DNA from: Solirubrobacterales bacterium
GTDB lineage: Bacteria > Actinomycetota > Thermoleophilia > Solirubrobacterales > 70-9
Direction of reading: 5' to 3'
DNA: 64,000 nt
Assembly (NCBI GenBank): GCA_023958085.1
Contig: JAMLGI010000001.1
Span: 248,001-312,000, forward strand
A program made the translations under genes and the position numbers. Numbering within the stretch: position 1 is the stretch's first letter; every line of letters starts with the position of its first letter. A model generated the notes under the pieces. That model worked only from the letters and a program-made list of their open reading frames with translations, ran no database searches and was not told the DNA's origin. Positions 5,979 through 46,498 of the stretch are shown piece by piece.

Positions 5979-8846
5979 CTAGTTCAGGGCGACCCGGTCG
6001 CTCACGGCAGTGACGGGAACCTCGATCTTCCTCACAGTCGGCTTGCCGTAGCAGCGGTTGGGGGCACCCTTCGGTTTCAACCTCGCCGTTATCTTCACGG
6101 TCACCCGGTTGCGATAAAGCCGTCCGGTCGCGGCGCGCAACGCCTGACGGGTTTTCGGCTTCAACTTCAAACGGAGATGCCGGTTCCGGTTGATCCTGAA
6201 TGTTCTCGGCTTCAGCTTCTGAACCCGGTTCCTTTCTCCGGCCCTGTAGAGAATGCTCATCTTCACCTTCGCTGCCACATCCCGGTTTGAGTTCAGGCGA
6301 ACCAGAACACCCGGAGTCTTGGCACCCCTCCCGAAGGGAGGTGACGGCCTGAACCGCTTCAAACGAAAAGTTGACTTCACCTGCGGGCAAACCACCGGTG
6401 CCGCCGTCACCTCCGAAACCGAACCGGTGTCACCACAACCCGTGACCGCCGGATCATTGTTCGAGTCACCACCATAGGAGGCAACCCAACGGTACGAACC
6501 GGCAGCATCAGGGGTGAATCCGGGCGAGGCATAGGTGCCACTGCCGCTCACCGTGACTGGAGCCGAGGTGAAAACCGGGGTCGCAGAACAAGCCGTGTCA
6601 TCAGCGCCAAACAACTCGAATGTGACCGTGCCCGAAGGAGTGAATCCGCCGGTCAGATCCGCGTTCACCGTGACCTCACCGCCGGCCACGACACTCGACG
6701 CCCCCGCCGCCACCAAAGTCGGCGCTGCCTTCGTGACCGTGTAGTTGATCGAATCGGAACCGGTCAAGGAATTGCCCGAGGTCGCGGCTACCGTGTAGGT
6801 GTGCGAGCCGACCGTGCCCGTGTCCAGGCTCCCCGACGGGCTCGAGGCACCGTTTGAGTCCTGACAGGACGAAAGCCCCGGGCCACCCGCCCCTTCCGTA
6901 CAGGCAAAAGAGGTCGGGACCGTCGCGCCGGCCGGGTAGGACCCACCGGCGGCCGGGCTGCTGATCGTCGCGGTCGGCGGATCGGCCTGAAGTGAAAACC
7001 GCCAGGTATCAGCGAAGTAGACGCTGTTGTCGCCTCCACCGAAGAGGAGCATGTTTCCCGAGGCGAGATCAAAGGACATTGACGCCTCGAAACGGGCAGC
7101 CGGACTTTGCGTCGGAGATTTCTGGGACCAGTCGTCGCCATTCCACACCCAGGAATCAGCCAGGGAGACTCCGCCGTCGGCCAATCCACCGAACAGGAGC
7201 ATGTTTCCCGAAGCCGGATCAAACGCCATCGACGACCTATCCCGGGCTGGCGGGCTGTGGGCCGGGGACTTCTGGGACCAGTCGCTGCCATCCCACACCC
7301 AGGTGTCAGTCAGGCGAACATCGCTGTTGTCCTTGCCACCGAACAGCACCGTGTTCCCCGAGGACGGGTCAAACGCCATCGACGCGAAGCTTCGGGCCGG
7401 CGGACTGTGGGCCGGGGACTTCTGGGTCCAGTCGCTGCCGTCCCACACCCAGGTATCTCCCCAGAGGCCGCCGTTTCTGCGTCCGCCGAACAGAACCGTG
7501 TTCCCCGAGGACGGGTTAAACACCATCGTCGCTCCCTGCCGGCCCGGCGGGCTGTGGGCCGGGGATTTCTGGGTCCAGTCGTTGCCGTCCCACACCCAGG
7601 TATCGCTCAAGTAGTTGGCGGCCCGAAATCCGCCGTACAGAACGGTGTTCCCCGAGGACGGGTCAAACACCATCGTCGCCCCTTCCCGGGCCGGTGGGCT
7701 GTGGGCCGGGGATCTCTGGGTCCAGTCGCTGCCGTCCCACACCCAGGTATCGCTCAAGTAATGGCCGCTGCGAAATCCGCCGAACAGCACCGTGTTCCCC
7801 GAGGACGGGTCAAACACCATCGTCGCCCCATACCGGTCAGCCGGACTGTGGGCCGGGGCAATCTGGCTCCAGTGCGAACTCAACCCGGCCGGGGGGCCGT
7901 AGGTCCAGGTCTCCTGGTGGATCACCGCGTCCCATCCACCGAACAGGAACAGACTTCCCGTTCGCGGATCAAACGCCATCGAAGAGTACAAGCCGGAACC
8001 CAGGTTTTGGGCCGGATTCATCTGAGTCCAGTCACTCCCGTTCCAGGTCCAGGTGGAGTTGTAGCTGCCACCAGCCAAAACCAGTCTCCCCAAGGTCGGG
8101 TCAAACGCCATCACCGCCGCGTATCGAGGCGTCGGGCTGTGGTCCGGGGAAAGCTGGGTCCAGTCGGTGCCGTTGAAGACCCAGGTGTCATCCAGGGTGC
8201 CACCGCCGTTTCCGCCAAACAGGACGATGTTCCCCGAAGCGGAATCAAACGCCATCGCCGCCAGAGTACGGGCTGAAGGGCTGTGGGTTGGGGACAGCTG
8301 AGACCAGTCGCTGCCGTTCCACACCCAGGTGTCATTGAACTTGCCGCTGTTCCCGTTGCCGCCGAACAGGATCATGTTGCCCGAGGACGGATCAAACACC
8401 ATTGATGCTCCGTCCCGGGCAGGTGGTTTGTGGGCAGGGGCGAGCTGAGTCCAGTCACTTCCGTTCCAGGTCCAGGTCTCGTCCTTGGATCCGGAAGGGC
8501 CGGCTCCGCCGAACATGAGAACGTTTCCCGAGACCGGATCAAACGCCATTGATGCCCCGTTGCGGATCGGAGGAACATGGGCGGGAGACAACTCGGTCCA
8601 GTCGCTCCCGTCCCACACCCAGGTGTCATTCAGGCTGCCGCTGCCGCTGTGTCCGCCGAACAGGACCATCTCCCCGGTTGACTCGTCAAAGGCCATCGCC
8701 GCCGACTGGCGGACGGGCGGGCTGTTTGCCGGAGAGAGTTGGGTCCAGGAATCCACCGGCGGCACATCCGCCGCCGCCGCCAAACCCTGCAAGCCGGCGA
8801 ACAGGAAACAACCGACCAAGACCACCAACGCTGCCCGATGTCTCAT
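5979..8846 (-). CDS. Secreted Kelch-repeat protein with Ig-like domains and basic C-terminal tail (paralogue 1)
   Basis: 955 residues. An N-terminal signal peptide ([23 protein letters not shown]) is followed by twelve Kelch-type repeats of about 50 residues. Each has the form [19 protein letters not shown], then [18 protein letters not shown], enough for two six-bladed beta-propellers. Next come an HYR-like segment ([15 protein letters not shown]), one bacterial Ig-like domain ([11 protein letters not shown] to [11 protein letters not shown]) and a lysine/arginine-rich tail with one Cys pair. Start ATG 8846 has GGAGGAG six bases upstream; an in-frame GTG sits one codon earlier. A tandem paralogue ends 44 bp upstream (8891), so the two are probably co-transcribed. 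Export and cell-surface display are likely; the ligand is unknown. Confidence 0.88.
7000..8760 (-). repeat. Twelve tandem Kelch-coding repeats, about 145 bp each
   Basis: Each unit contains a near-identical stretch on the plus strand around TCCCACACCCAGGTATC and GTCAAACACCATCGTCGCCC. Successive copies between 7320 and 7830 differ by only a few bases, indicating recent internal duplication or gene conversion. The repeats are coding and in register, and are not a CRISPR array. Confidence 0.8.
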
Positions 8847-8890
8847 CACCTACTCCTCCAAGAATCCAAATCGAATTACTGGATATACCC

Positions 8891-11800
8891 CTATCTGCCT
8901 ACCGAAACCCTGATCTTTCTCCGAACCGGCTTGCGGTAACAGGTGTCCGCAGAACCCTTCGGCTTCAACTTCGCGATGAGCACAACAGTCACCTTGGTGC
9001 CGTAAAGCCGACCGGTCGTTTTGCGAAGCCTTCTCTGCGCTTTCGGCTGCAACTTCAATCGCAAATTCAGTTTGCGGTTCACCCGCAACGTTCTCGGCTT
9101 CAGCTGCTGAACCCACTGCTTGCCGGCCTTGTAGAGAATCCTTCCCTTCACCTTCGCGACCAAAGGCCGGTTCGTCTTCACCTGAACCGGAACTATCGCT
9201 CGCTTCGCAGCCTGTCTGTTCACCCTCAGCTTGCCCAGGCCAAACGTCAACTTCATCTGCGGGCAAACCACCGGTGCTGTGGTCACCTCGGAAACCGAAC
9301 CCGCAGCGCCGCAAGCCGTCGTCACGGCCGCGTTGTTTGCGTCACCGCTGTAGTTGGCAACCCACCGGTAGGAACCGGCGGCCTCGGGAGCGAAACCGGG
9401 TGACGAGTAAGTGCCGTTGCCACTGACCGAAACCAGCTCGGAGCTGAACACCGGATCACCCGAACAGGTCGAATCATCCGGGCCAAACAGATCAAAGGAC
9501 GCGGTGCCGGAAGGCGAGTTCCCGCCGGATAGATCCGCGTCCACCTTGATCGCGCCACCGAGCACAACTCTCGTCGCACCAGTCCCTGCCAAGACCGGAG
9601 TGACCTTCGTGACGGTGGAAACCGAACCGGCATCACCACAACCCGTGGCGACAGCCTGGTTGTTTGCGTCACCGCTGTAGGCCACAACCCACCGGTAGGA
9701 ACCAGGAGCGGTAGTAGTAAACCCGGGTGAGGGGTAGGTGCCGGCACCACTCACCAGCACCTGATGCGACGTGAATATCGGTGTCGCAGAACAGTCTGCA
9801 TCGTCAGGACCAAACAGGGTGAAAGTCACCGTCCCCGAAGGCGAGCCCCCACCCGCGAGATCCCCGTCCACCTTGATCACACCACCGATCACGGTGCCGG
9901 TCGCGACAGAAGCCGCCAGGGACGGAGTGGCCTTCGTGACCGTGGAAACCGAACCGGCATCACCACAACCCGTGGCGACAGCCTGGTTGTTTGCGTCACC
10001 GCCATAGGAAGCAACCCACCGGTACGAGCCCGAACTGTCCGGAGTGAAGCCGGGAGAGGAGTAGGTGCCATTGCCACTGACCGTGACCGGATCCGAGGTG
10101 AAAACAGGCGTCGCAGAACACCCCGTGTCGCCCGGACCATAGGCCTTGAATGTGACCGAGCCGGAAGGCGAGAAGCCACCGGTCAGATCCGCATCCACCT
10201 TGATCTGGCCACCGAGCACAGCACCGGTCGCACCATTCTCGGCCAGGGTCGGGGCGGCCTTGGTGACCGTGTAACTGACCGAATTAGTGCCGGTCAGGGA
10301 GTTGCCGGAAGTCGCCGTCACCAGATAGGTGTGCGAACCGGCGCTGCCGGTGTCCAGCGATCCGGATGGGGCGGGGTCTCCATCCGAATCCGTGCAGGAC
10401 GAGAGTCCCGGGCCACCCGCCCCTTCCAGACAGCTAAAAGATGTTGCGACCGTCGCACCGACCGGGTATGAACCACCACCGGCCGGGCTACTGATCGCAG
10501 CGGTCGGCGGATTGGCCTGAAGCGAAAAGCCCCAGGTATCAGCGAAGTAGTTGACGCCGGTGTCTCCGCCGAACAGGAACATGTTTCCCGAGACCGGATC
10601 AAACCCCATAGACGCCCCTTGCCGGGCCGGTGGGCTGTGGGCCGGGGATTTCTGGGTCCAGTCGCTGCCATTCCAGACCCAGGTATCAGCGAAGAAACTG
10701 CCAGCGCTGCTTCCGCCGAAGAGGACCATGTTTACTGACGTCGGATCAAACGCCAGCGACGCCCAAGACCGGGCAGCCGGGCTGTGGGCCGGGGATTTCT
10801 GAGTCCAGTCGCCGCCATTCCACACCCAGGTATCAGCCAGGGAAACTCCGCCACCGGTCAATCCGCCGAACAGGACCATGTTTCCCGCAGCCGGATCGAA
10901 CGTCATCGACGCCCTGTCCCGGGCCGGTGGGCTGTGGGCAGGGGATTTCTGGGTCCAGTCACTCCCGTCCCACACCCAGGTATCGGCCAGGGTGACACTG
11001 CCGTTGTCTGTGCCGCCGAACAGGACTGTGTTCCCGGAGGACGGGTCAAATGCCATCGAAGCATACTTTCGGGCAGCCGGGCTATGGGCAGGGGATTTCT
11101 GGGTCCAGTCGCTGCCATCCCACACCCAGGTATCTCCCAAGGCGCCGCTGTTGCTGCGTCCCCCGAACAGGATCGTGTTCCCCGAGGACGGGTCAAACAC
11201 CATCGGCGCCCCGAACCGGGCGGACGGATGATGAGCTGGAGACTTCTGGGACCAGTCGCTGCCATCCCACACCCAGGTATCGCTCAAGTAACTGCCGTTG
11301 TATCCGCCGAACAGAACCATGTTTCCCGACATCGGATCAAACGCCATTGACGCCACCGTCCGGGTAGACGGCTTATGGGCCGGGGAGAACTTGTTCCAGT
11401 CCGAGCTCAACCCGGACGGGGGCCCGTACACCCAGGTATCGGCCAAGGCACCGCCGCCGTTTCCGCCGAACAAGACCATTTTCCCCGACGTCGAATCGAA
11501 AGCCATAGATGCCCAGGACCGGGCGGGCGGGCCATTGACCGAAGGCAAATTGGTCCAGTCGTTCCCATTCCAGGCCCAGTAATCACCCAGGGGGCCGCCG
11601 TCGTTTCCGCCGAACAGAACTGTCTTCCCCGAGGTCGGATCGAAGGCCACCGACGCCCCGTAGCGGCCTGAGGGGCTGTGGGCCGGAGACATCTGAGACC
11701 AGTCACTCCCGTCCCACATCCAGGTGTCAGCGAGGTAGCCGCTGTCGCCGAATCCGCCAAACAGGACCACTTTCCCCGAGGCCGGATCGAAGGTCATTGA

Positions 11801-12388
11801 CGCAAATTCTCGGGCAGGTGGACTGAGGGCCGGGGACATCTGGGACCAGTCGCTGCCGTCCCACACCCAGGTATCAGCCAAGCGACCGCCACTGCCGAAT
11901 CCGCCGAACAGGACCACATTCCCCGAAGCTGGATCGAACGCCATTGACGCGCTGTCCCTGGCAGGTGGGCTATTGGCCGGAGACATCTGAGACCAGTCGC
12001 TGCCATCCCAGACCCAGGTGTCAGCCAAGCGACCACCGGCGCTGCTTCCGCCGAACAGGACCATGTTCCCCGACGCCGAATCAAAAGCCATCGACGCCCC
12101 GTACCGGGCAGATGGGCTCTGGACCGGGGACTTCTGGGCCCAGTCGCTGCCGTCCCAGACCCAGGTATCGGCCAAGCGACCGCTGCTGCCGTCTCCGCCG
12201 AACAAGACCACGTTCCGCGAAGCCGAATCAAAAGCCATCGCGCTCCCTTGCCGGGCAGACGGGCTGTGGACCGGGGATTTCTGCGACCAGGATTTAACCG
12301 GCGGCACACTTGCCGCCCCCGCCAAACCCTGCGAGCCGACGAACAGGAAGCAACCGACCAATACCACCAACGCTGCTCGAAAACGCAC
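8891..12388 (-). CDS. Secreted Kelch-repeat protein with three Ig-like domains and basic C-terminal tail (paralogue 2)
   Basis: 1165 residues, same design as its downstream neighbour. It has a signal peptide ([23 protein letters not shown]), twelve Kelch repeats forming two six-bladed propellers and an HYR-like segment. It differs in having three bacterial Ig-like domains (KVDADLTGG...[14 protein letters not shown] and two further copies) where the paralogue has one. This accounts for the 210-residue length difference. It ends in a basic tail with CYRKPVRRKI. Start is GTG 12388 behind GGGGAGGATTCTAGG. The signal peptides and tails of the two proteins are clearly homologous, so the locus arose by gene duplication followed by gain or loss of Ig domains. 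Confidence 0.88.
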   Translation of the reverse strand: MRFRAALVVLVGCFLFVGSQGLAGAASVPPVKSWSQKSPVHSPSARQGSAMAFDSASRNVVLFGGDGSSGRLADTWVWDGSDWAQKSPVQSPSARYGASMAFDSASGNMVLFGGSSAGGRLADTWVWDGSDWSQMSPANSPPARDSASMAFDPASGNVVLFGGFGSGGRLADTWVWDGSDWSQMSPALSPPAREFASMTFDPASGKVVLFGGFGDSGYLADTWMWDGSDWSQMSPAHSPSGRYGASVAFDPTSGKTVLFGGNDGGPLGDYWAWNGNDWTNLPSVNGPPARSWASMAFDSTSGKMVLFGGNGGGALADTWVYGPPSGLSSDWNKFSPAHKPSTRTVASMAFDPMSGNMVLFGGYNGSYLSDTWVWDGSDWSQKSPAHHPSARFGAPMVFDPSSGNTILFGGRSNSGALGDTWVWDGSDWTQKSPAHSPAARKYASMAFDPSSGNTVLFGGTDNGSVTLADTWVWDGSDWTQKSPAHSPPARDRASMTFDPAAGNMVLFGGLTGGGVSLADTWVWNGGDWTQKSPAHSPAARSWASLAFDPTSVNMVLFGGSSAGSFFADTWVWNGSDWTQKSPAHSPPARQGASMGFDPVSGNMFLFGGDTGVNYFADTWGFSLQANPPTAAISSPAGGGSYPVGATVATSFSCLEGAGGPGLSSCTDSDGDPAPSGSLDTGSAGSHTYLVTATSGNSLTGTNSVSYTVTKAAPTLAENGATGAVLGGQIKVDADLTGGFSPSGSVTFKAYGPGDTGCSATPVFTSDPVTVSGNGTYSSPGFTPDSSGSYRWVASYGGDANNQAVATGCGDAGSVSTVTKATPSLAASVATGTVIGGVIKVDGDLAGGGSPSGTVTFTLFGPDDADCSATPIFTSHQVLVSGAGTYPSPGFTTTAPGSYRWVVAYSGDANNQAVATGCGDAGSVSTVTKVTPVLAGTGATRVVLGGAIKVDADLSGGNSPSGTASFDLFGPDDSTCSGDPVFSSELVSVSGNGTYSSPGFAPEAAGSYRWVANYSGDANNAAVTTACGAAGSVSEVTTAPVVCPQMKLTFGLGKLRVNRQAAKRAIVPVQVKTNRPLVAKVKGRILYKAGKQWVQQLKPRTLRVNRKLNLRLKLQPKAQRRLRKTTGRLYGTKVTVVLIAKLKPKGSADTCYRKPVRRKIRVSVGR
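9330..10270 (-). repeat. Three tandem Ig-domain-coding repeats, about 327 bp period
   Basis: The plus-strand segment starting ACCGAACCGGCATCACCACA at 9621 recurs at 9948, and roughly 60 bp around it are identical between the two copies, a spacing of 327 bp (109 codons). This marks recent tandem duplication of the Ig domain and a likely site for further copy-number change. Confidence 0.75.
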
Positions 12389-26524: not shown

Positions 26525-29500
26525 ATGAACTTGTCGGGACGCGTGAATGGGACGGTGAGGGACTTGGCAGGCTGGGGCTGCGGGGCGAACGGAATCGAGG
26601 GTCCACGTCGTGCCGTGTTCCTGGTTGGCACCCTTGTTGCGATGTTGCTGTCGGTCGCGACGGCACTGGTGCCGGCGCAGGCCTCCGCCGAAGCGCCGGG
26701 CGGTGACGTGCCCTCGATCTCGGAGCAGTTCTCGATCCGGACGGTTTCCTCGCGTCCGGAGATGGTCAGTGGTGGTGACGCGCTGGTCGAGCTGCGGGTT
26801 CCTCCGGGCGTCGATCTCGAGGGGCTCTCCGTGCTGGTGGGCGGCAACGACCGGACCGCTGACTTCGCCCCGGTTCCCGGCGATCCGAACCTGTTGCGAG
26901 GAATGATCACTCTGCCCCAGGCTGAGCTGAACACGGTGGTCGCAACTCTCCCCGGCTATCCGGACCGAACCCTGTACCTGGTCAACCACCCGACCACCGG
27001 CCCGATCCTTTCCGGCCCGCACCAGCAGCCGTTCACCTGCACCACCGCCCTGCCGACGAACGGGCTGGGCGCGCCGCTCGACGCCGACTGCTCGGTCGCG
27101 GCCACCGTCACCTACCAGTACAGAAAGGCGCAGGGAGCGGGGTACCTGCCGCTGGCCGATCCGTCCGCGCCCTACCCGGCGGACGGTGCGATGACCACCA
27201 CCAGCGAGGGGAAGACCGTGCCCTTCGCGGTGGCGGTCGAACGCGGGGTGATCAACCGGGCGATCTACACGATCCAGACCCTGATCGACGTCGGTCCCGG
27301 ATCGACCCAGGTCCGGGCAGGTCAGGGATTCAACGGCAAGATGGTCTTCAACTTCGGCGGCGGCTGCGAGGCCGGATACCACCAGGGCCAGCAGGGGGGT
27401 GGTGTCAACGGGATCGTCGGGTCCGGCTATGCCTTCGGACAGTCCACCCTGAACGTGTTCGGCAACCGCTGTTCCGATCACGTCTCGGCCGAAACCCTCT
27501 CGATGGTCAAGGAGCGTTTCAGCGAGAACTGGGCGCCGATCAAGGCAACCATCGGGACCGGCGGCTCCGGCGGCTCGATGGCCCAGCAGATGCTGAACAA
27601 CAACTTCCCGGGGCTGCTCGACGGTTCGATCCTCGGCAACTCCTTCCCCGACAACACCTTCGCCGCCAACCTGCTGATGGACTGCCGGATCGTGGATAGC
27701 TTCGTGGACGCGGCCGGCTGGACCGAAGCCGAAAAACACGCGGTCAAGGGAGGCGGGATCGAGCAGACCTGCGACCGGACCTTCCAGGCCTTCGGGGCCA
27801 ACTTCTTCAACCCGGCGGACTGCCCTCCGACGGTGCCGGCCCCGAATCGCTACAACGCGACGACCAACCCGACCGGGCTGCGCTGCGTGGTCTTTGATGG
27901 CAACCGGAACGTGTGGGGAACCGACCCCGGAACCGGATTCGCCCGCCAGCCGATCGACAACATCGGGGTCCAGTACGGGCTTGGGGCGCTTCGGGACGGA
28001 ACGATCACTCCGGCGCAGTTCATAGGGCTGAACCAGAACGTCGGCAGCCTCGATCACGACGGTGTTCCGCAACCGGGGCGCCGGACAGCTTCGGCAGAGT
28101 CTCTGGAGATCGCCTATCGATCGGGTGGAATGAACGAGGGCGGTGCCGGGGCCCAGGGCATCCCGGTTCTCGACAACCGGGACCACTCGATCGAGATCAC
28201 CGAGAACGGCCATCACACGATCCACGCCCTCTCGATGCGGGCGAGGATGAGCGCGGCGGCAGGTGGGGCGACAGTCCCGCACGTGATCTACACCTCGCCG
28301 ACCGGCAACCTGACCCCGGGTCTCTCGGTCCAGAACCTGATCCCCCGGATGGCCGGCTGGATTGACAACATCCAGGCTGACCAGCGACCGGTCAGCCCCC
28401 GGATCAAGGCGGTCGAGGGCTGGCCCGCCACCCTCACCGACTCCTGCTTCGATGCCACCGGGAACGTGATCGCCGAAGAGACCGCCTCGGTTGATTCCGG
28501 CACTTGCGGTTCGCTCTTTCCGAGCGGGCTGGCGGCCCGGCAGATCGCCGGTGGACCACTGGCCAACGACGTTCTGAAGTGCCAGTTGAAGCTGGTCACC
28601 CCGGCCGACTACCCGCCTGGCCTGACCGAGACGGAACTCGATCAGATCCGGGCGGTCTTTCCGGACGGAGTCTGCGACTACTCGAAGCCCGGGGTCGAGC
28701 AGGAGACCCCGCGGGACAGCTGGCGGGCACTGCCGCTGACGGGAGCTACGGACATCGCTCCGCCCGACACCGCGATCTCCTCCGCCCCGGTCGGAGTGGG
28801 GGCTGCCCCGGAGGTGGAGTTCCGCTTCTCCTCAACCGAGACCGGAACCCGGTTCGAGTGCCGCCTGGACAGCGATGAAGAGTCCGGCTTCGGCCACTGC
28901 GAATCCGGGCAGCCCTACACGGATCTCGCCGACGGACTCCACACCTTTGCCGTGAGGGCGATCGACGGTGCCGGGAACCCGGACCCGACCCCGGCGACCT
29001 TCACCTTCCGGGTCGGTGAGCCACAGCCCGCAGCTTCGCTCCAGCCACAGGAACACGACTTCGGCTGGATCGAGGTCGGCAGGGAGGCGGAGAAGGTCTT
29101 CACGCTGGCGAGCGTCGGTGACGCCGACCTCGAGGTCGGCGCGGCCACGCTGACCGGTCCCGGGGCCGGAGACTTCACGATCAGCGCCGATGGCTGCAGC
29201 GGGATTTCCGTCCCGGCCGGCCAGGACTGCCCGGTCACGGTCCGGTTCTCCCCGAACGGGCCCGGCCTCCGCCAGGCGGCACTCCGCATGGAGCTGAACG
29301 ACACCGCGGGGGCGGCGGAAGCTTGGCTCGTGGGCGCGGGAACGGAGATTCAACCCCCGGTCACCCCCAGGGCAGGACTCGGGATCGGCAGGCTCAGACT
29401 CACCGGGCCCCGGGTACGGCGACACAAGCGGTACGCCCGGCTCGGTGTCACCTGCTCGCTGGTCGTGATGACCCGCTGCTCGGGCCGGGTCCGTTTGATG

Positions 29501-29731
29501 GCCAGGCGGAGCGCGCTCGGTCTGAGGAAGCGTCCGAGGCAGTGGATCCGGATCGGGTTCCGCGGCTACTCGGTCGGCCGGGGGTATTCCGGGATCAGGA
29601 TTAAGCTGACCGGGCGAGCGGCCTGGGCGGCGCACCGACGTCGCACTCCGCTCCGGGTGAAGGTCGTGGTCACGGTGAAACAGAGGTCCTCCCATGACAC
29701 CGTCAGGAGCGCGATCAGGAAACTGAGATAG
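26525..29731 (+). CDS. Secreted DUF6351-family (alpha/beta-hydrolase-like) protein with Ig-like and ASPM/SPD-2/Hydin-like domains
   Basis: 1068 residues. A signal peptide follows a basic N-terminus (VFLVGTLVAMLLSVATALVPAQASA). The large N-terminal body belongs to the DUF6351 type and contains a nucleophile-elbow sequence GTGGSGGSM with Ser348 in a G-x-S-x-G context, plus NFGGGCEAGYHQGQQGG. Four or more paired cysteines fit an exported enzyme. After about residue 740 come an Ig-like domain (PPDTAISSAPVGVG...GTRFECRLD), a choice-of-anchor/Hydin-type domain (HDFGWIEVGREAEKVFTLASVGDADL, split) and a basic tail. Hydrolase activity is inferred from the elbow only; the substrate is unknown. Confidence 0.8.
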   Translation: MNLSGRVNGTVRDLAGWGCGANGIEGPRRAVFLVGTLVAMLLSVATALVPAQASAEAPGGDVPSISEQFSIRTVSSRPEMVSGGDALVELRVPPGVDLEGLSVLVGGNDRTADFAPVPGDPNLLRGMITLPQAELNTVVATLPGYPDRTLYLVNHPTTGPILSGPHQQPFTCTTALPTNGLGAPLDADCSVAATVTYQYRKAQGAGYLPLADPSAPYPADGAMTTTSEGKTVPFAVAVERGVINRAIYTIQTLIDVGPGSTQVRAGQGFNGKMVFNFGGGCEAGYHQGQQGGGVNGIVGSGYAFGQSTLNVFGNRCSDHVSAETLSMVKERFSENWAPIKATIGTGGSGGSMAQQMLNNNFPGLLDGSILGNSFPDNTFAANLLMDCRIVDSFVDAAGWTEAEKHAVKGGGIEQTCDRTFQAFGANFFNPADCPPTVPAPNRYNATTNPTGLRCVVFDGNRNVWGTDPGTGFARQPIDNIGVQYGLGALRDGTITPAQFIGLNQNVGSLDHDGVPQPGRRTASAESLEIAYRSGGMNEGGAGAQGIPVLDNRDHSIEITENGHHTIHALSMRARMSAAAGGATVPHVIYTSPTGNLTPGLSVQNLIPRMAGWIDNIQADQRPVSPRIKAVEGWPATLTDSCFDATGNVIAEETASVDSGTCGSLFPSGLAARQIAGGPLANDVLKCQLKLVTPADYPPGLTETELDQIRAVFPDGVCDYSKPGVEQETPRDSWRALPLTGATDIAPPDTAISSAPVGVGAAPEVEFRFSSTETGTRFECRLDSDEESGFGHCESGQPYTDLADGLHTFAVRAIDGAGNPDPTPATFTFRVGEPQPAASLQPQEHDFGWIEVGREAEKVFTLASVGDADLEVGAATLTGPGAGDFTISADGCSGISVPAGQDCPVTVRFSPNGPGLRQAALRMELNDTAGAAEAWLVGAGTEIQPPVTPRAGLGIGRLRLTGPRVRRHKRYARLGVTCSLVVMTRCSGRVRLMARRSALGLRKRPRQWIRIGFRGYSVGRGYSGIRIKLTGRAAWAAHRRRTPLRVKVVVTVKQRSSHDTVRSAIRKLR

Positions 29732-42508: not shown

Positions 42509-44647
42509 CTAGCGACGTTTCTTGTGACGCTTGGCCTTCCTGACCTTCTGTTTGAAGACGACGGTCTTCCTCGTGGTTCGAGATTCGGTCCACTCCGAGG
42601 TGAAGCTGACAGCCAGCCGGACCTTCGCGCTCCCTCGCCGCTTGAGCTGCTTCTTCACCTTCCTGGTCGGAGCCAGCTTCAGGGTGACCGTCTTCCGTCT
42701 GGCGGTGCTCCGGGCCGAGGTTTTCTTCACTCCACCCTGCTTCAAGGTGACCAGGCCGGCACCGATGGTGGTCACCCGGACGGTGGCGGTGCCATTTTTC
42801 TGGTTCAGTTTCAGCCGGCCGAGTTTCGGGGCCGGTGAAGCGGACCTTCCCTGCGTGAACCAGATCGGGGTGGAGTAGGCCTCGGTGATCATGGCCAGGG
42901 GGGAGGGTCCGTACTTGCGGGAGAGCTGGAATCCGTAGCGGGCGGTGCGGTCCCCGACGTAACTGGCGGTGAAGTCGTTGCCGGTCACGTCGAAGGTCTT
43001 CGCCGGGACACCGTCACGGATCACGGTGAGCTTCCAGTCGCCCGGCCGCGGATTGGTGGCGGCGCCCTTGACCCGGAACGACAGCCGGAGTTCCCGGCCC
43101 TTGACCGAGTGGCCGGCGATCGCCCTGTAGCCCTCCGGGGTGGCGGCGGTCATCAGCACATCCGGAGTGTCGGCACCGAAAACCTTGGCGTAGGTCTGGC
43201 CGGCTCGAACCGCGTCCCTGATCCCGCTTGGCGAGAGCTGCTTCGCGTAAACCGCGGTCGCGCCCTGCCCGATCACCGGGTCGGTTCCGATTCCGTAGCC
43301 TGCCCCGGCGCGGTGGTCGTCGCTGGAGCCCACTGCCGCAATGTGGTCTCCGGCCGCGAGGCGCTCCTCGTAAAACCGGATCGCCAGAGGAGTGAACGGA
43401 TTCGGAACCGGGGTCGTGTCCGGGGCTCCGTGGTTGAGGTCGGCGATTCCGTTGGCGACCTCCATCGCGTCGATGTCCCCGTAGCCGGTCTGCTGGTCGG
43501 TGAAGGTCCAGCCGCAGCCACGGCAGGAGGCGGGGGCCGACCGGAAGGTCTCCGGGTGGTTCTGCTGCCCCCAGCCTCCGAGCCGGTCGATCTCGGGAAA
43601 GATGCTTGAGGGCTCGTTCGCGTTCGGCACGTCGGTCAGGTCACCCTGATCGAGCGTGAACGGCCCCGGCCCGCTCGGCTTCGGGAAGCGGCGGATCGGG
43701 TTGGTCCGGAAGTCGGCCATCCGGCTCGCGCCCTGACTGTTGATGTGGCCGTTGTAGGTGGTGATCTCGCTACCGGGGATCACCAGCTTGCCCGGGTACT
43801 GGTAGCGCTCGGCGCCGAGCAGCTGCCGTGAAACGTCGTTGTTGTGATCGACCATGTCGACGAAGTCGAGGCCGGCACCCAGCTTCGGCTGGCCCGGCAC
43901 GATCGGGGCGAAGGCGAGATCGAGGCTCTCCTTCATCAGTGCATTGCCCGGCTCCTGCTCACCGTGAACGTGAACGTCACCCTGATACCAGCCCGGCTTC
44001 GGGTTGGCGATCCGGGGCTGCCACGGTTCCGGCTGGAAGGGATCGTTCGACCATGAAGTGTTGGTGCTCGGGGTGATTCCGAGCTTCCACTCGATTCCCC
44101 CGGGCGGGATCCAGCCGCCCCCGAACTCGACCGCCCAGATGCCGTCCGGGATCGGCCCGGGCCGGTAGCCGCGGCTGGTCCGGCCGGGAACGTAGGCCTT
44201 GCGATCGAGTCCGTAGGTCGCTTCGTTCGAGAAGCCGTTCTCGCCGATCCCGATCATCCGGGTGGCCGAACCGCTCCAGCCTCGCAACTCGTCCATCGTC
44301 CAGTTGGGAATCTCGGGTGTCTTCGGCCCGTACACCCCGAGGTCCAGGGTCGGGGTCACGTCACTGCCGACCAGCTTCGAGTAGCAGTAGCGAATCCGCA
44401 TCCCCTTGGTGCCGATCGCCACGTCGAATGGAATCTGCATGTAGTCCTGGTTCACGGCGTCGGTCAGGGTGCCTTCGTAGACCACCTCGTCGGCGGGGTT
44501 CACCCCGTCATTCACGGCTCCTCCCTGAACCGGACTGGTCGGCAGGCTGCAGGCGCCGGCAACCGCAGCCGGCACCAGGATCAGCCCGGTCAGCGCGGCA
44601 AGGAACAGGGTCAGTTTCAGACGGAGCAAACGCGGCGGGATTCCCAT
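42509..44647 (-). CDS. Secreted CehA/McbA-type PHP metallohydrolase-like protein with basic tail
   Basis: 712 residues. A signal peptide (LKLTLFLAALTGLILVPAAVAGA) precedes a beta-rich N-terminal domain. The polymerase-and-histidinol-phosphatase fold follows: YQGDVHVHGE, DFVDMVDHNN, IPGSEITTYNGHIN, GGWGQQNHPETF and AAVGSSDDHRAG give the ordered His/Asp/Glu metal ligands. CehA/McbA members include carbaryl hydrolases, but most have unknown substrates. The C-terminal 110 residues form a Lys/Arg-rich beta-sandwich-like tail (TATVRVTTIGAGLVTLK to KRHKKRR), also seen in other secreted proteins here, perhaps for wall attachment. Confidence 0.85.
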   Translation of the reverse strand: MGIPPRLLRLKLTLFLAALTGLILVPAAVAGACSLPTSPVQGGAVNDGVNPADEVVYEGTLTDAVNQDYMQIPFDVAIGTKGMRIRYCYSKLVGSDVTPTLDLGVYGPKTPEIPNWTMDELRGWSGSATRMIGIGENGFSNEATYGLDRKAYVPGRTSRGYRPGPIPDGIWAVEFGGGWIPPGGIEWKLGITPSTNTSWSNDPFQPEPWQPRIANPKPGWYQGDVHVHGEQEPGNALMKESLDLAFAPIVPGQPKLGAGLDFVDMVDHNNDVSRQLLGAERYQYPGKLVIPGSEITTYNGHINSQGASRMADFRTNPIRRFPKPSGPGPFTLDQGDLTDVPNANEPSSIFPEIDRLGGWGQQNHPETFRSAPASCRGCGWTFTDQQTGYGDIDAMEVANGIADLNHGAPDTTPVPNPFTPLAIRFYEERLAAGDHIAAVGSSDDHRAGAGYGIGTDPVIGQGATAVYAKQLSPSGIRDAVRAGQTYAKVFGADTPDVLMTAATPEGYRAIAGHSVKGRELRLSFRVKGAATNPRPGDWKLTVIRDGVPAKTFDVTGNDFTASYVGDRTARYGFQLSRKYGPSPLAMITEAYSTPIWFTQGRSASPAPKLGRLKLNQKNGTATVRVTTIGAGLVTLKQGGVKKTSARSTARRKTVTLKLAPTRKVKKQLKRRGSAKVRLAVSFTSEWTESRTTRKTVVFKQKVRKAKRHKKRR

Positions 44648-44854: not shown

Positions 44855-45640
44855 ATGACCAGACGGAAGCGAAAAACCGAGCCCGGCGAGACCGGGGAGG
44901 ACCTGCCGGAAGACACCCGGGAGATGTGGACCGTTGCCGGACCCTCCGGGCCGGACGGGCCCGGAGGAGGTGGCAGCTCCGGCGACGCCGAAATCCCGGG
45001 TGGGGCCGATGAGGACCGGATTGAGAACGAGACTGGCGAATCCGACGAGTTCGGGGAGCCTCCGGATCAAGCCGGAGTCGACTGGACCGAGGGGGAGAAT
45101 CCGGAGGACGGGTTCTACGAGGATGAAGCCGACTGGACCGAGGACGACCCGGTCGATGACGACGAGGAACCGTACGACGAGGAACCGTACGACGAGGATC
45201 CCGAGACGGCGGACGACGCCTGGATCGAGGAGGAGCAGCCCGAACCGGCCGGATCCCCGGGAACCGAGCGGCGACGATCGGTCCGCGACCGGCTGGAGGC
45301 GATCCCGTGGCCGGATACCCCCGATCCGGATCCGCGCCATCTGCTGGCCGGGGTCGCGGTCGTCGCGGTCGCGCTGGCGGTCGGCTTCGGTGCCTACCAG
45401 CTCGGCCGGGACAGCGGACCGGATCTCGACACCGCCCGGATCCAGGGTGAAGCAGCAGGACGGCAGGCGGGCGCGATCGAAGGCGCCTCCACCGGCTACC
45501 CGGCCGGCTACCGCAAGGGTCGGGAGAAGGGGTTCGGACGGGCCTACCGGAGGGCCTACCGGATCTACTACAGAAGGGCCTTCGAGCAGGCGGGGCTCGA
45601 TGTGCCGGGTGAGGGCGAGATCGAGGTCCCCGAACCGTGA
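44855..45640 (+). CDS. Single-pass membrane protein with acidic N-terminus and glycine-every-fourth-residue helix (A of three)
   Basis: 261 residues from ATG 44855. Residues 1-135 are strongly acidic and disordered (PVDDDEEPYDEEPYDEDPE). A basic patch and one transmembrane helix follow (LLAGVAVVAVALAVGFGAY, 163-183). Beyond it, glycines fall at 198, 202, 206, 210, 214, 218, 222 and 226, exactly every fourth residue, then alanines at 230 and 234 in a Tyr/Arg-rich helix. The pattern resembles the deca-GX3 motif of Yae1/Lto1 or a glycine zipper. No named family recognised. GTGA overlap with gene B. Confidence 0.78.
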   Translation: MTRRKRKTEPGETGEDLPEDTREMWTVAGPSGPDGPGGGGSSGDAEIPGGADEDRIENETGESDEFGEPPDQAGVDWTEGENPEDGFYEDEADWTEDDPVDDDEEPYDEEPYDEDPETADDAWIEEEQPEPAGSPGTERRRSVRDRLEAIPWPDTPDPDPRHLLAGVAVVAVALAVGFGAYQLGRDSGPDLDTARIQGEAAGRQAGAIEGASTGYPAGYRKGREKGFGRAYRRAYRIYYRRAFEQAGLDVPGEGEIEVPEP

Positions 45641-46128
45641 GTGGCCGGAGGCAGACAACCTGGCTGGCCGCGTTCTCGCTGCTCCTGCTCACAGCGCTTG
45701 GTGGATACCTGATCGGGTCCGGAGGGGCGGTGGGCAGAAGTGAGGCCGACCAGGCCCGGGAGGAAGCCTTCCGGCAGGCCCGCGACCGGACCACCGGCAA
45801 CGTCGCGCGCATCGCGGCAAGGCGTGGCTACCGGGCCGGGATGAAACGCGGCAGGGTGGCCGGGACGCAACTCGGCGAACGGGAAGGGATGAGGTTCGGG
45901 GCAGGCACCGCTTCGCTTCAGGCTGTCGACCAGGAGATCGGGGCGGCCCGGGCCGCTGCCGCTGCCGCCCGGTCCGAGATCAGCGCCCGCCAGGCCAACT
46001 GCGGTGTGGTGGCCAAAGCCCCCGACTGGTGTCCGACCGCCGACGAACTGGCCGCCTGGCGGGCGACGGTAGAGGCCGCCCGCCAGGCGGCCAAGCCTCC
46101 GGAGGAAGACGGTCGTGAAGGCCGCTGA
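45637..46128 (+). CDS. Single-pass membrane protein with GX3 repeat (B of three)
   Basis: 163 residues from GTG 45637, overlapping gene A by 4 bp. The N-terminal transmembrane helix is LAAFSLLLLTALGGYLIG. A charged helix leads to seven glycines at 64, 68, 72, 76, 80, 84 and 88 (RGYRAGMKRGRVAGTQLGER is part of it). An Ala/Gln coiled-coil-like helix follows. A loop with two cysteines, NCGVVAKAPDWC, may form a disulphide if the C-terminus is extracellular. It shares the design of A and C. Confidence 0.78.
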   Translation: MSGRRQTTWLAAFSLLLLTALGGYLIGSGGAVGRSEADQAREEAFRQARDRTTGNVARIAARRGYRAGMKRGRVAGTQLGEREGMRFGAGTASLQAVDQEIGAARAAAAAARSEISARQANCGVVAKAPDWCPTADELAAWRATVEAARQAAKPPEEDGREGR

Positions 46129-46498
46129 ACCGGGGACAACTGCCGTCAGGACGGTCGTCACCGTCGTCAGCGTGATGGTGGTCGTGATCGCAGCGGCGAT
46201 CGGGCTGGCCCTGGCCCCCGACCGGCCTGACCCGGGATCGGCTGCGGCCACGGACGAGGAGGCTGCCGCAAGGGTCCGCGCGGAAACCGTTCGGGAGGTC
46301 GCTGCCGGATCTGCCGAGAGAGGTTTTCGTGACGGGCTCGCGGCCGGACTCCGTCACGGCCGCATGACCGGCCGGCGGACCGGCCGTACCGACGCCGAGT
46401 TCGCGATCGCGAAACAGGCCGCCGCCTCCGCCCAGGCCGAAGCTGCCTCCGCCCAGGCTGAACTTTCCGGAATGTCGGCGGCCCCGCCGAGCCCCTGA
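46115..46498 (+). CDS. Single-pass membrane protein with GX3 repeat (C of three)
   Basis: 127 residues from GTG 46115, overlapping gene B by 14 bp. One transmembrane helix (VVTVVSVMVVVIAAAIGLAL) is followed by an acidic helix and six glycines at 70, 74, 78, 82, 86 and 90 (RGFRDGLAAGLRHGRMTGRR). An Ala/Gln-rich helix ends the protein. It is the shortest of the three coupled genes. Confidence 0.78.
   Translation: MKAAEPGTTAVRTVVTVVSVMVVVIAAAIGLALAPDRPDPGSAAATDEEAAARVRAETVREVAAGSAERGFRDGLAAGLRHGRMTGRRTGRTDAEFAIAKQAAASAQAEAASAQAELSGMSAAPPSP

What the first reader, a model, noticed from the sequence alone, without database searches (positions are those of the whole stretch)
44855..46498. Three coupled membrane proteins, each with a run of glycines exactly every fourth residue
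Seen: overlapping genes A, B and C (4-bp and 14-bp overlaps) each encode one transmembrane helix followed by 8, 7 and 6 glycines at strict i+4 spacing in a Tyr/Arg/Ala helix. A starts with a 135-residue acidic region; B ends with a two-cysteine loop. Known: the deca-GX3 motif of Yae1/Lto1 and glycine zippers use such spacing for close helix packing. Inference: the three may pack against each other through their GX3 faces and form a membrane complex. I know no described three-gene system of this kind.
Basis: partly seen in the sequence, partly recalled or inferred. Interest (0 to 1): 0.78.

Follow-up and report, generated by a model that had tools for sequence, protein, structure and literature searches.

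The report
Paired membrane proteins with glycine-zipper stalks
Three overlapping genes encode small single-pass membrane proteins that each carry a helix with glycine at every fourth residue, and in related bacteria such genes come as a near-fixed pair or are fused to a protein kinase, so they look like an undescribed stalk that holds a sensor or enzyme outside the cell membrane.

Summary
Genes A (44855-45640), B (45637-46128) and C (46115-46498) overlap by 4 and 14 bp. Each encodes one TM helix followed by 8, 7 and 6 glycines at strict i+4 spacing (0 of 20,000 shuffles each). No curated family matches above cut-off. The trio recurs in the genus (Solirubrobacterales MAGs). The deeper unit is an A-B pair: in all 28 A loci that could be read across the class Thermoleophilia, a B gene lies next door, 24 with exactly a 4-bp overlap (background 15%). 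A and B diversify together (r=0.905; best of 2000 permutations 0.347). C is a B duplicate. Relatives reveal the layout. Six genomes carry Ser/Thr kinase-TM-(GX3)12-17-two-Cys head, and three B proteins carry an SGNH-like hydrolase beyond the GX3 helix. This places the GX3 stretch outside the membrane. Best reading: A and B form a hetero-oligomeric extracytoplasmic GX3 stalk, with a variable disulfide or enzyme head on B and an acidic cytoplasmic tail with a conserved DT[QR]E[MF] motif on A. A-B contact and signalling are inferred, not shown; AlphaFold models were low-confidence. GX3 pairing resembles Yae1-Lto1 and FliH, but A, B and C fail membership in both.

The parts
44855..45640 (+). Gene A: acidic cytoplasmic tail, TM, 8xGX3, conserved Tyr-rich helix ending IEVPEP
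   Evidence: ORF and translation; 15-row full-length and 16-row core alignments
44909..44932 (+). A residues 19-26 EDTREMWT: short motif conserved inside the acidic disordered tail
   Evidence: DT[QR]E[MF] at this place in 8 of 9 full-length genus A proteins
45341..45397 (+). A transmembrane segment (approx. res 163-181), followed by GAYQLG / GGYLLG-type end
   Evidence: hydropathy, alignment
45446..45532 (+). A GX3 array, 8 glycines (res 198-226)
45545..45637 (+). A C-terminal YxxxYxxxYxxAFxxAGLxxP....IEVPEP region
   Evidence: near-invariant Y231, Y235, Y239, P251, P259
45637..46128 (+). Gene B: TM, 7xGX3, Ala-rich helix, two-Cys loop
45664..45720 (+). B transmembrane segment (approx. res 10-28)
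45826..45900 (+). B GX3 array, 7 glycines (res 64-88)
46000..46032 (+). B two-cysteine loop C122-C132 (ANCG...WCPT)
   Evidence: both Cys kept in all genus B proteins tabulated
46115..46498 (+). Gene C: TM, 6xGX3, Ala/Gln helix; duplicated B, found in the genus only
46154..46210 (+). C transmembrane segment (approx. res 14-32)
46322..46384 (+). C GX3 array, 6 glycines (res 70-90)
   Evidence: G70-G86 invariant in 11 rows
42509..44647 (-). Divergent neighbour: CehA/McbA-family metallohydrolase with a signal-like start, near the trio in 8 of 12 genus loci
   Evidence: NF038032 6.8e-34; tblastn to genus loci

Best explanation
A, B and C are subunits of a membrane assembly built on an extracytoplasmic GX3 stalk. 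Each is a single-pass protein with its N-terminus inside. Outside the membrane the chain continues as a helix with a glycine stripe every fourth residue. A and B are made together from overlapping genes and their GX3 helices pack against each other, so that the TM helices and the stalk form one close-packed bundle. B carries the variable outer head: here a two-cysteine loop, presumably a disulfide, elsewhere a different Cys pair or an SGNH-like hydrolase. A carries the inner tail: here a long acidic disordered tail with a conserved DT[QR]E[MF] motif that may be a phospho-threonine or docking site. C is a duplicated B that adds a third strand in this genus. The assembly would tether or sense something at the cell surface and report it inwards, as the kinase-GX3-head fusions of relatives would. 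Shown here: gene linkage and coupling, co-diversification, glycine conservation, fusion architectures. Inferred: direct GX3-GX3 contact, stoichiometry, disulfide, signalling role, ligand.
For: A-B linkage in 28/28 readable loci, 24 with exactly a 4-bp overlap, against 15% of 133 other same-strand neighbour pairs (loci are not phylogenetically independent). Paralogous cassettes in one genome keep their own partner (A and B nearest neighbours agree for G003b/G013b, G029b/G036b/G018b, G029a/G018a, G355b/G050), and distance matrices correlate at r=0.905 against a permutation maximum of 0.347. G columns are far more conserved than X columns. Topology: a Pkinase domain (PF00069, 2.5e-40 and 1.4e-38) sits N-terminal to TM-(GX3)17-two-Cys head, an architecture seen in six genomes with HRD and DFG present. 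An SGNH-like domain follows the GX3 helix in three B proteins, weakly recognised as Lipase_GDSL_2 in one (0.00024, below cut-off), next to Acyl_transf_3 genes in the two loci checked. Mean K+R is higher on the N side of the TM in A, and B is net positive on the N side and net negative on the C side. Precedent: mutation of the deca-GX3 motif breaks the Yae1-Lto1 complex (PMC4523923). As in FliH (PMC2674601), aromatics concentrate at x1 of GxxxG (x1/x2/x3 27/4/0% in A; 20/0/3% in long arrays). C vs B: hhalign 1.4e-16 over 108 columns.
Against: No direct evidence of contact. AlphaFold monomers have mean pLDDT 52-54 with the GX3 region lowest in B. GX3 counts in paired A and B do not match (e.g. 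8/3, 4/7), so a simple in-register zipper is not required. 6 of 18 sampled genus genomes lack a B match, so the system is dispensable. No single neighbour gene names a substrate or signal. The positive-inside signal for B is weak by K+R count alone. The three f4-family loci have A and B divergent, so tight co-translation is not universal.
Confidence: 0.5

Rival explanations
1. The pair is a structural spacer or anchor only: GX3 helices homo- or hetero-oligomerise to tether an extracytoplasmic domain at a set height, with no signal passing inwards.
For: Heads vary (two-Cys loop, CFDASGHPC, SGNH-like hydrolase), A tails outside the genus are short and not acidic, and in f4 the pair sits among ccmB/ccmC genes with no signalling gene.
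Against: Kinase fusions in six genomes suggest inward signalling; a short motif is conserved within the otherwise diverging A tail in the genus.
Confidence: 0.3
2. The GX3 helices act inside the cell, FliH-like, as an adaptor on a cytoplasmic ATPase or secretion apparatus.
For: Weak FliH model hits over the arrays (E 0.00057-0.22 for A, B, C) and FliH-like x1 aromatic bias.
Against: Hits cover only the repeat and lie far below curated cut-offs (19.5 vs 180 bits); no FliH C-terminal domain; kinase N-terminal and SGNH C-terminal fusions give the opposite topology.
Confidence: 0.07
3. A, B and C are unrelated proteins whose GX3 runs are convergent low-complexity helices in a GC-rich genome and are linked by accident.
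For: GX3 models match unrelated families (Yae1, FliH), and other GGN-rich stretches exist in the genome.
Against: 28/28 linkage, conserved glycine registers, shared GGYxxG TM end, hhalign A-B 2.9e-10 and B-C 1.4e-16.
Confidence: 0.05

Closest known systems
Yae1-Lto1 deca-GX3 adaptor complex (PMC4523923)
   Same: Two partner proteins, each with a GX3 array; the arrays are needed for their complex formation
   Different: Yae1-Lto1 is a cytosolic eukaryotic pair for Fe-S insertion into Rli1 with a C-terminal Trp on Lto1; A/B/C have a TM, no C-terminal Trp, 6-8 glycines, and an extracytoplasmic location by inference
FliH / YscL AxxxG(xxxG)mxxxA repeat (PMC2674601)
   Same: Long GxxxG arrays in a polar helix; aromatics favoured at x1
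   Different: FliH is a cytosolic partner of the export ATPase with its own C-terminal domain; here no FliH domain and a membrane anchor
PknB/StkP-type transmembrane Ser/Thr kinases (PASTA kinases)
   Same: Relatives in six Thermoleophilia genomes carry a PknB-like kinase N-terminal to the same kind of TM-GX3 module
   Different: The outer part is a GX3 stalk and a small two-Cys head rather than PASTA repeats; A/B/C themselves have no kinase
GxxxG / glycine-zipper TM dimers
   Same: Glycine stripe thought to allow close helix packing
   Different: The array here lies outside the membrane segment in a polar, Arg/Lys/Ala-rich helix

Membership tests
Yae1/Lto1 deca-GX3 | Ten consecutive GX3 units (about 40 residues) | tested here: not met
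   8, 7 and 6; Yae1_N below cut-off for C and absent for A, B
Yae1/Lto1 deca-GX3 | Soluble protein without TM | tested here: not met
   one TM each
Yae1/Lto1 deca-GX3 | C-terminal Trp on one partner | tested here: not met
   termini PEP, EGR, PSP
Yae1/Lto1 deca-GX3 | GX3-dependent heterocomplex | not testable with these tools
   needs an interaction assay or multimer prediction
FliH | FliH model over its curated cut-off | tested here: not met
   best 19.5 bits against cut-off 180
FliH | GxxxG array with aromatic x1 | tested here: met
   against PMC2674601; clearest in A and the long arrays, weak in B
FliH | C-terminal ATPase-binding domain | tested here: not met
   no family match outside the array
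Transmembrane Ser/Thr kinase receptor | Pkinase domain | tested here: not met
   A, B, C none; present only in fused relatives

The most novel reading that the evidence does not exclude
A previously undescribed class of bacterial cell-surface receptors in Thermoleophilia: obligate A-B (here A-B-C) hetero-oligomers whose TM helices run into an extracytoplasmic GX3 glycine-zipper stalk, carrying exchangeable heads outside and a phospho-regulated tail inside, with one-chain kinase versions of the same stalk in sister families.
Probability: 0.3. Interest if true: 0.78.

Novelty: new variant of a known kind. Interest (0 to 1): 0.62.

Why it matters
GX3 arrays have been described in two cytosolic settings (Yae1-Lto1 and FliH/YscL), and how long polar GX3 helices pack is still poorly defined. 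Here is a third, membrane-anchored setting with dozens of natural heteropairs, one-chain long-array versions, and fusions that indicate topology. It gives a clean system to test whether GX3 stripes encode partner specificity and can carry a signal across a membrane, and it defines a family that Pfam and NCBIfam miss.

Tried and rejected
A DNA-repeat origin of the arrays was rejected. PDB search with the A profile: no credible solved relative (best E 0.018, an NGHM-type repeat). Fold search was not run because both models have mean pLDDT below 55. The nar operon as functional partner was rejected: NarG adjacency is unique to this window among the 15 other loci compared, some of them short. Yae1_N survey: only 2 of 299 class genomes over cut-off, so the Pfam model is a poor detector of these proteins. 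A phospho-site reading of DT[QR]E[MF] rests on loose agreement with the M. tuberculosis PknA pattern (acidic at -1, hydrophobic at +3; PMC7164672) and on the presence of 4 Pkinase and 3 FHA matches in the genome: a lead only.

Full report
Observation. Each has one hydrophobic segment followed by strict i+4 glycines: 8, 7 and 6. No shuffle of 20,000 reached these values in any of the three. The array has no long DNA repeat behind it. None of the three has a Pfam, PHROG or NCBIfam match above cut-off; the weak hits are mostly to repeat-only parts of Yae1_N and FliH.

Distribution. B was found in 16 of 61 genomes searched, 12 of the 18 of the genus including the window's own. Reading the surrounding DNA showed the A-B-C order in the genus; C is present in all 11 genus loci where the contig reaches it. 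A profile of the A core matched 38 of 399 genomes of the class but almost nothing outside the class in a phylum sample (one weak match). The named records are Solirubrobacterales/Actinomycetota MAGs.

The pair. I tabulated 28 A-B pairs. In 24, A and B overlap by exactly 4 bp. In one the gap is 39 bp. In three of family f4 the two genes are adjacent but divergent, and in the locus where both flanks were identified they lie between ccmB and ccmC. One further strong A hit, G036:C205, ends at a contig edge. Background for a possible 4-bp overlap among other same-strand neighbours was 20 of 133. Distance matrices of A and B correlate at 0.905 against a best permutation value of 0.347; shared descent contributes, but second copies in the same genome also stay with their own partner. 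So the cassette appears to be inherited as a unit. Profile comparison shows C is closest to B (1.4e-16 over 108 columns), aligning to A only in the TM. A and B share the TM end and array (2.9e-10; repeat composition inflates such scores).

Architecture and topology. Related proteins carry recognisable domains on either side of the same TM-GX3 module. In G066, G121, G164, G156, G174 and G086 an intact-looking Ser/Thr kinase (HRD, DFG) precedes the TM, then 12-17 GX3 units, then a small head with two cysteines (Pfam on two of them; NCBIfam on a third). In G029, G036 and G018 the B protein carries an SGNH-type domain after the array; only the G018 copy reaches Lipase_GDSL_2, weakly (0.00024, below cut-off), and the motifs GDS and GTND were read by eye. 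Acyl_transf_3 genes lie beside the pair in the two loci checked. A kinase must be inside, and SGNH partners of such acyltransferases normally work outside (general knowledge), so the array is most likely outside. Other long-array proteins (12-15 units) occur without a detected partner gene, consistent with self-assembly; this is inference.

Conservation. Glycine columns are 93-98% conserved against 49-59% at X. Aromatics concentrate at x1, as reported for FliH, which suggests a similar kind of helix packing. A also has a near-invariant Tyr-rich helix and a Pro-containing end. The genus A tail is acidic and diverges freely except for DT[QR]E[MF] (8 of 9 full-length proteins). B keeps two or more Cys in most lineages, in different loops; the f4, G382 and G355a copies have none.

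Neighbours. A CehA/McbA-type metallohydrolase (NF038032) with a signal-like start lies near the trio in 8 of 12 genus loci, and PD40-propeller and M48 genes in fewer. NarG follows the trio only here. None fixes a function.

Mechanism. Taken together, A and B probably form a hetero-oligomeric stalk that holds B's head outside and A's tail inside. Shown: linkage, coupling, co-diversification, conservation, fusions. Inferred: contact, disulfide, signalling. The models (pLDDT 52-54) predict helices for the TM and most of the array but cannot test packing.

Comparison. It works like Yae1-Lto1 in that two GX3 proteins are probably partners, and its helix chemistry resembles FliH, but it fails the TM, repeat-number and C-terminal tests. 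A limited literature search found no description of a membrane-anchored GX3 stalk pair or GX3 receptor kinase; absence from this library is not proof.

Noticed in passing
L082:7054-8634, L123, L128, L137, L138, L140: Ser/Thr kinase - TM - 12 to 17 GX3 units - two-Cys head in six Thermoleophilia genomes; for L128 the closest NCBIfam kinase model is the PASTA kinase, matched only over the kinase part. The juxtamembrane PTQAFGDA of three of them resembles the A-tail motif.
   Followed up: partly
L085, L095, L096, L098, L100, L129-L131: Stand-alone TM-(GX3)12-15 proteins with a shared small C-terminal two-Cys domain; no Pfam match for L085.
   Followed up: partly
L068:2779-4115, L070, L071: A-B pair whose B carries an SGNH-like hydrolase, next to Acyl_transf_3 genes: possible surface O-acylation module.
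   Followed up: partly
L034:8576-11489, L072, L074: Divergent A/B pair inserted in a cytochrome c maturation cluster (between ccmB and ccmC in L034).
   Followed up: partly
L073:7301-9094: ORF joining an MFS transporter to an A-like TM-GX3 end; fusion or read-through not decided.
   Followed up: no
window 5979-12388: Two long secreted-looking proteins in tandem with nearly the same signal-like start, likely duplicates.
   Followed up: no
window 26525-29731: 1068-aa ORF with five i+4 glycines and one N-terminal hydrophobic segment.
   Followed up: no
L022, L025, L026, L029: A gene for a roughly 1,000-aa PD40 beta-propeller protein is divergent from A across a short intergenic region.
   Followed up: partly
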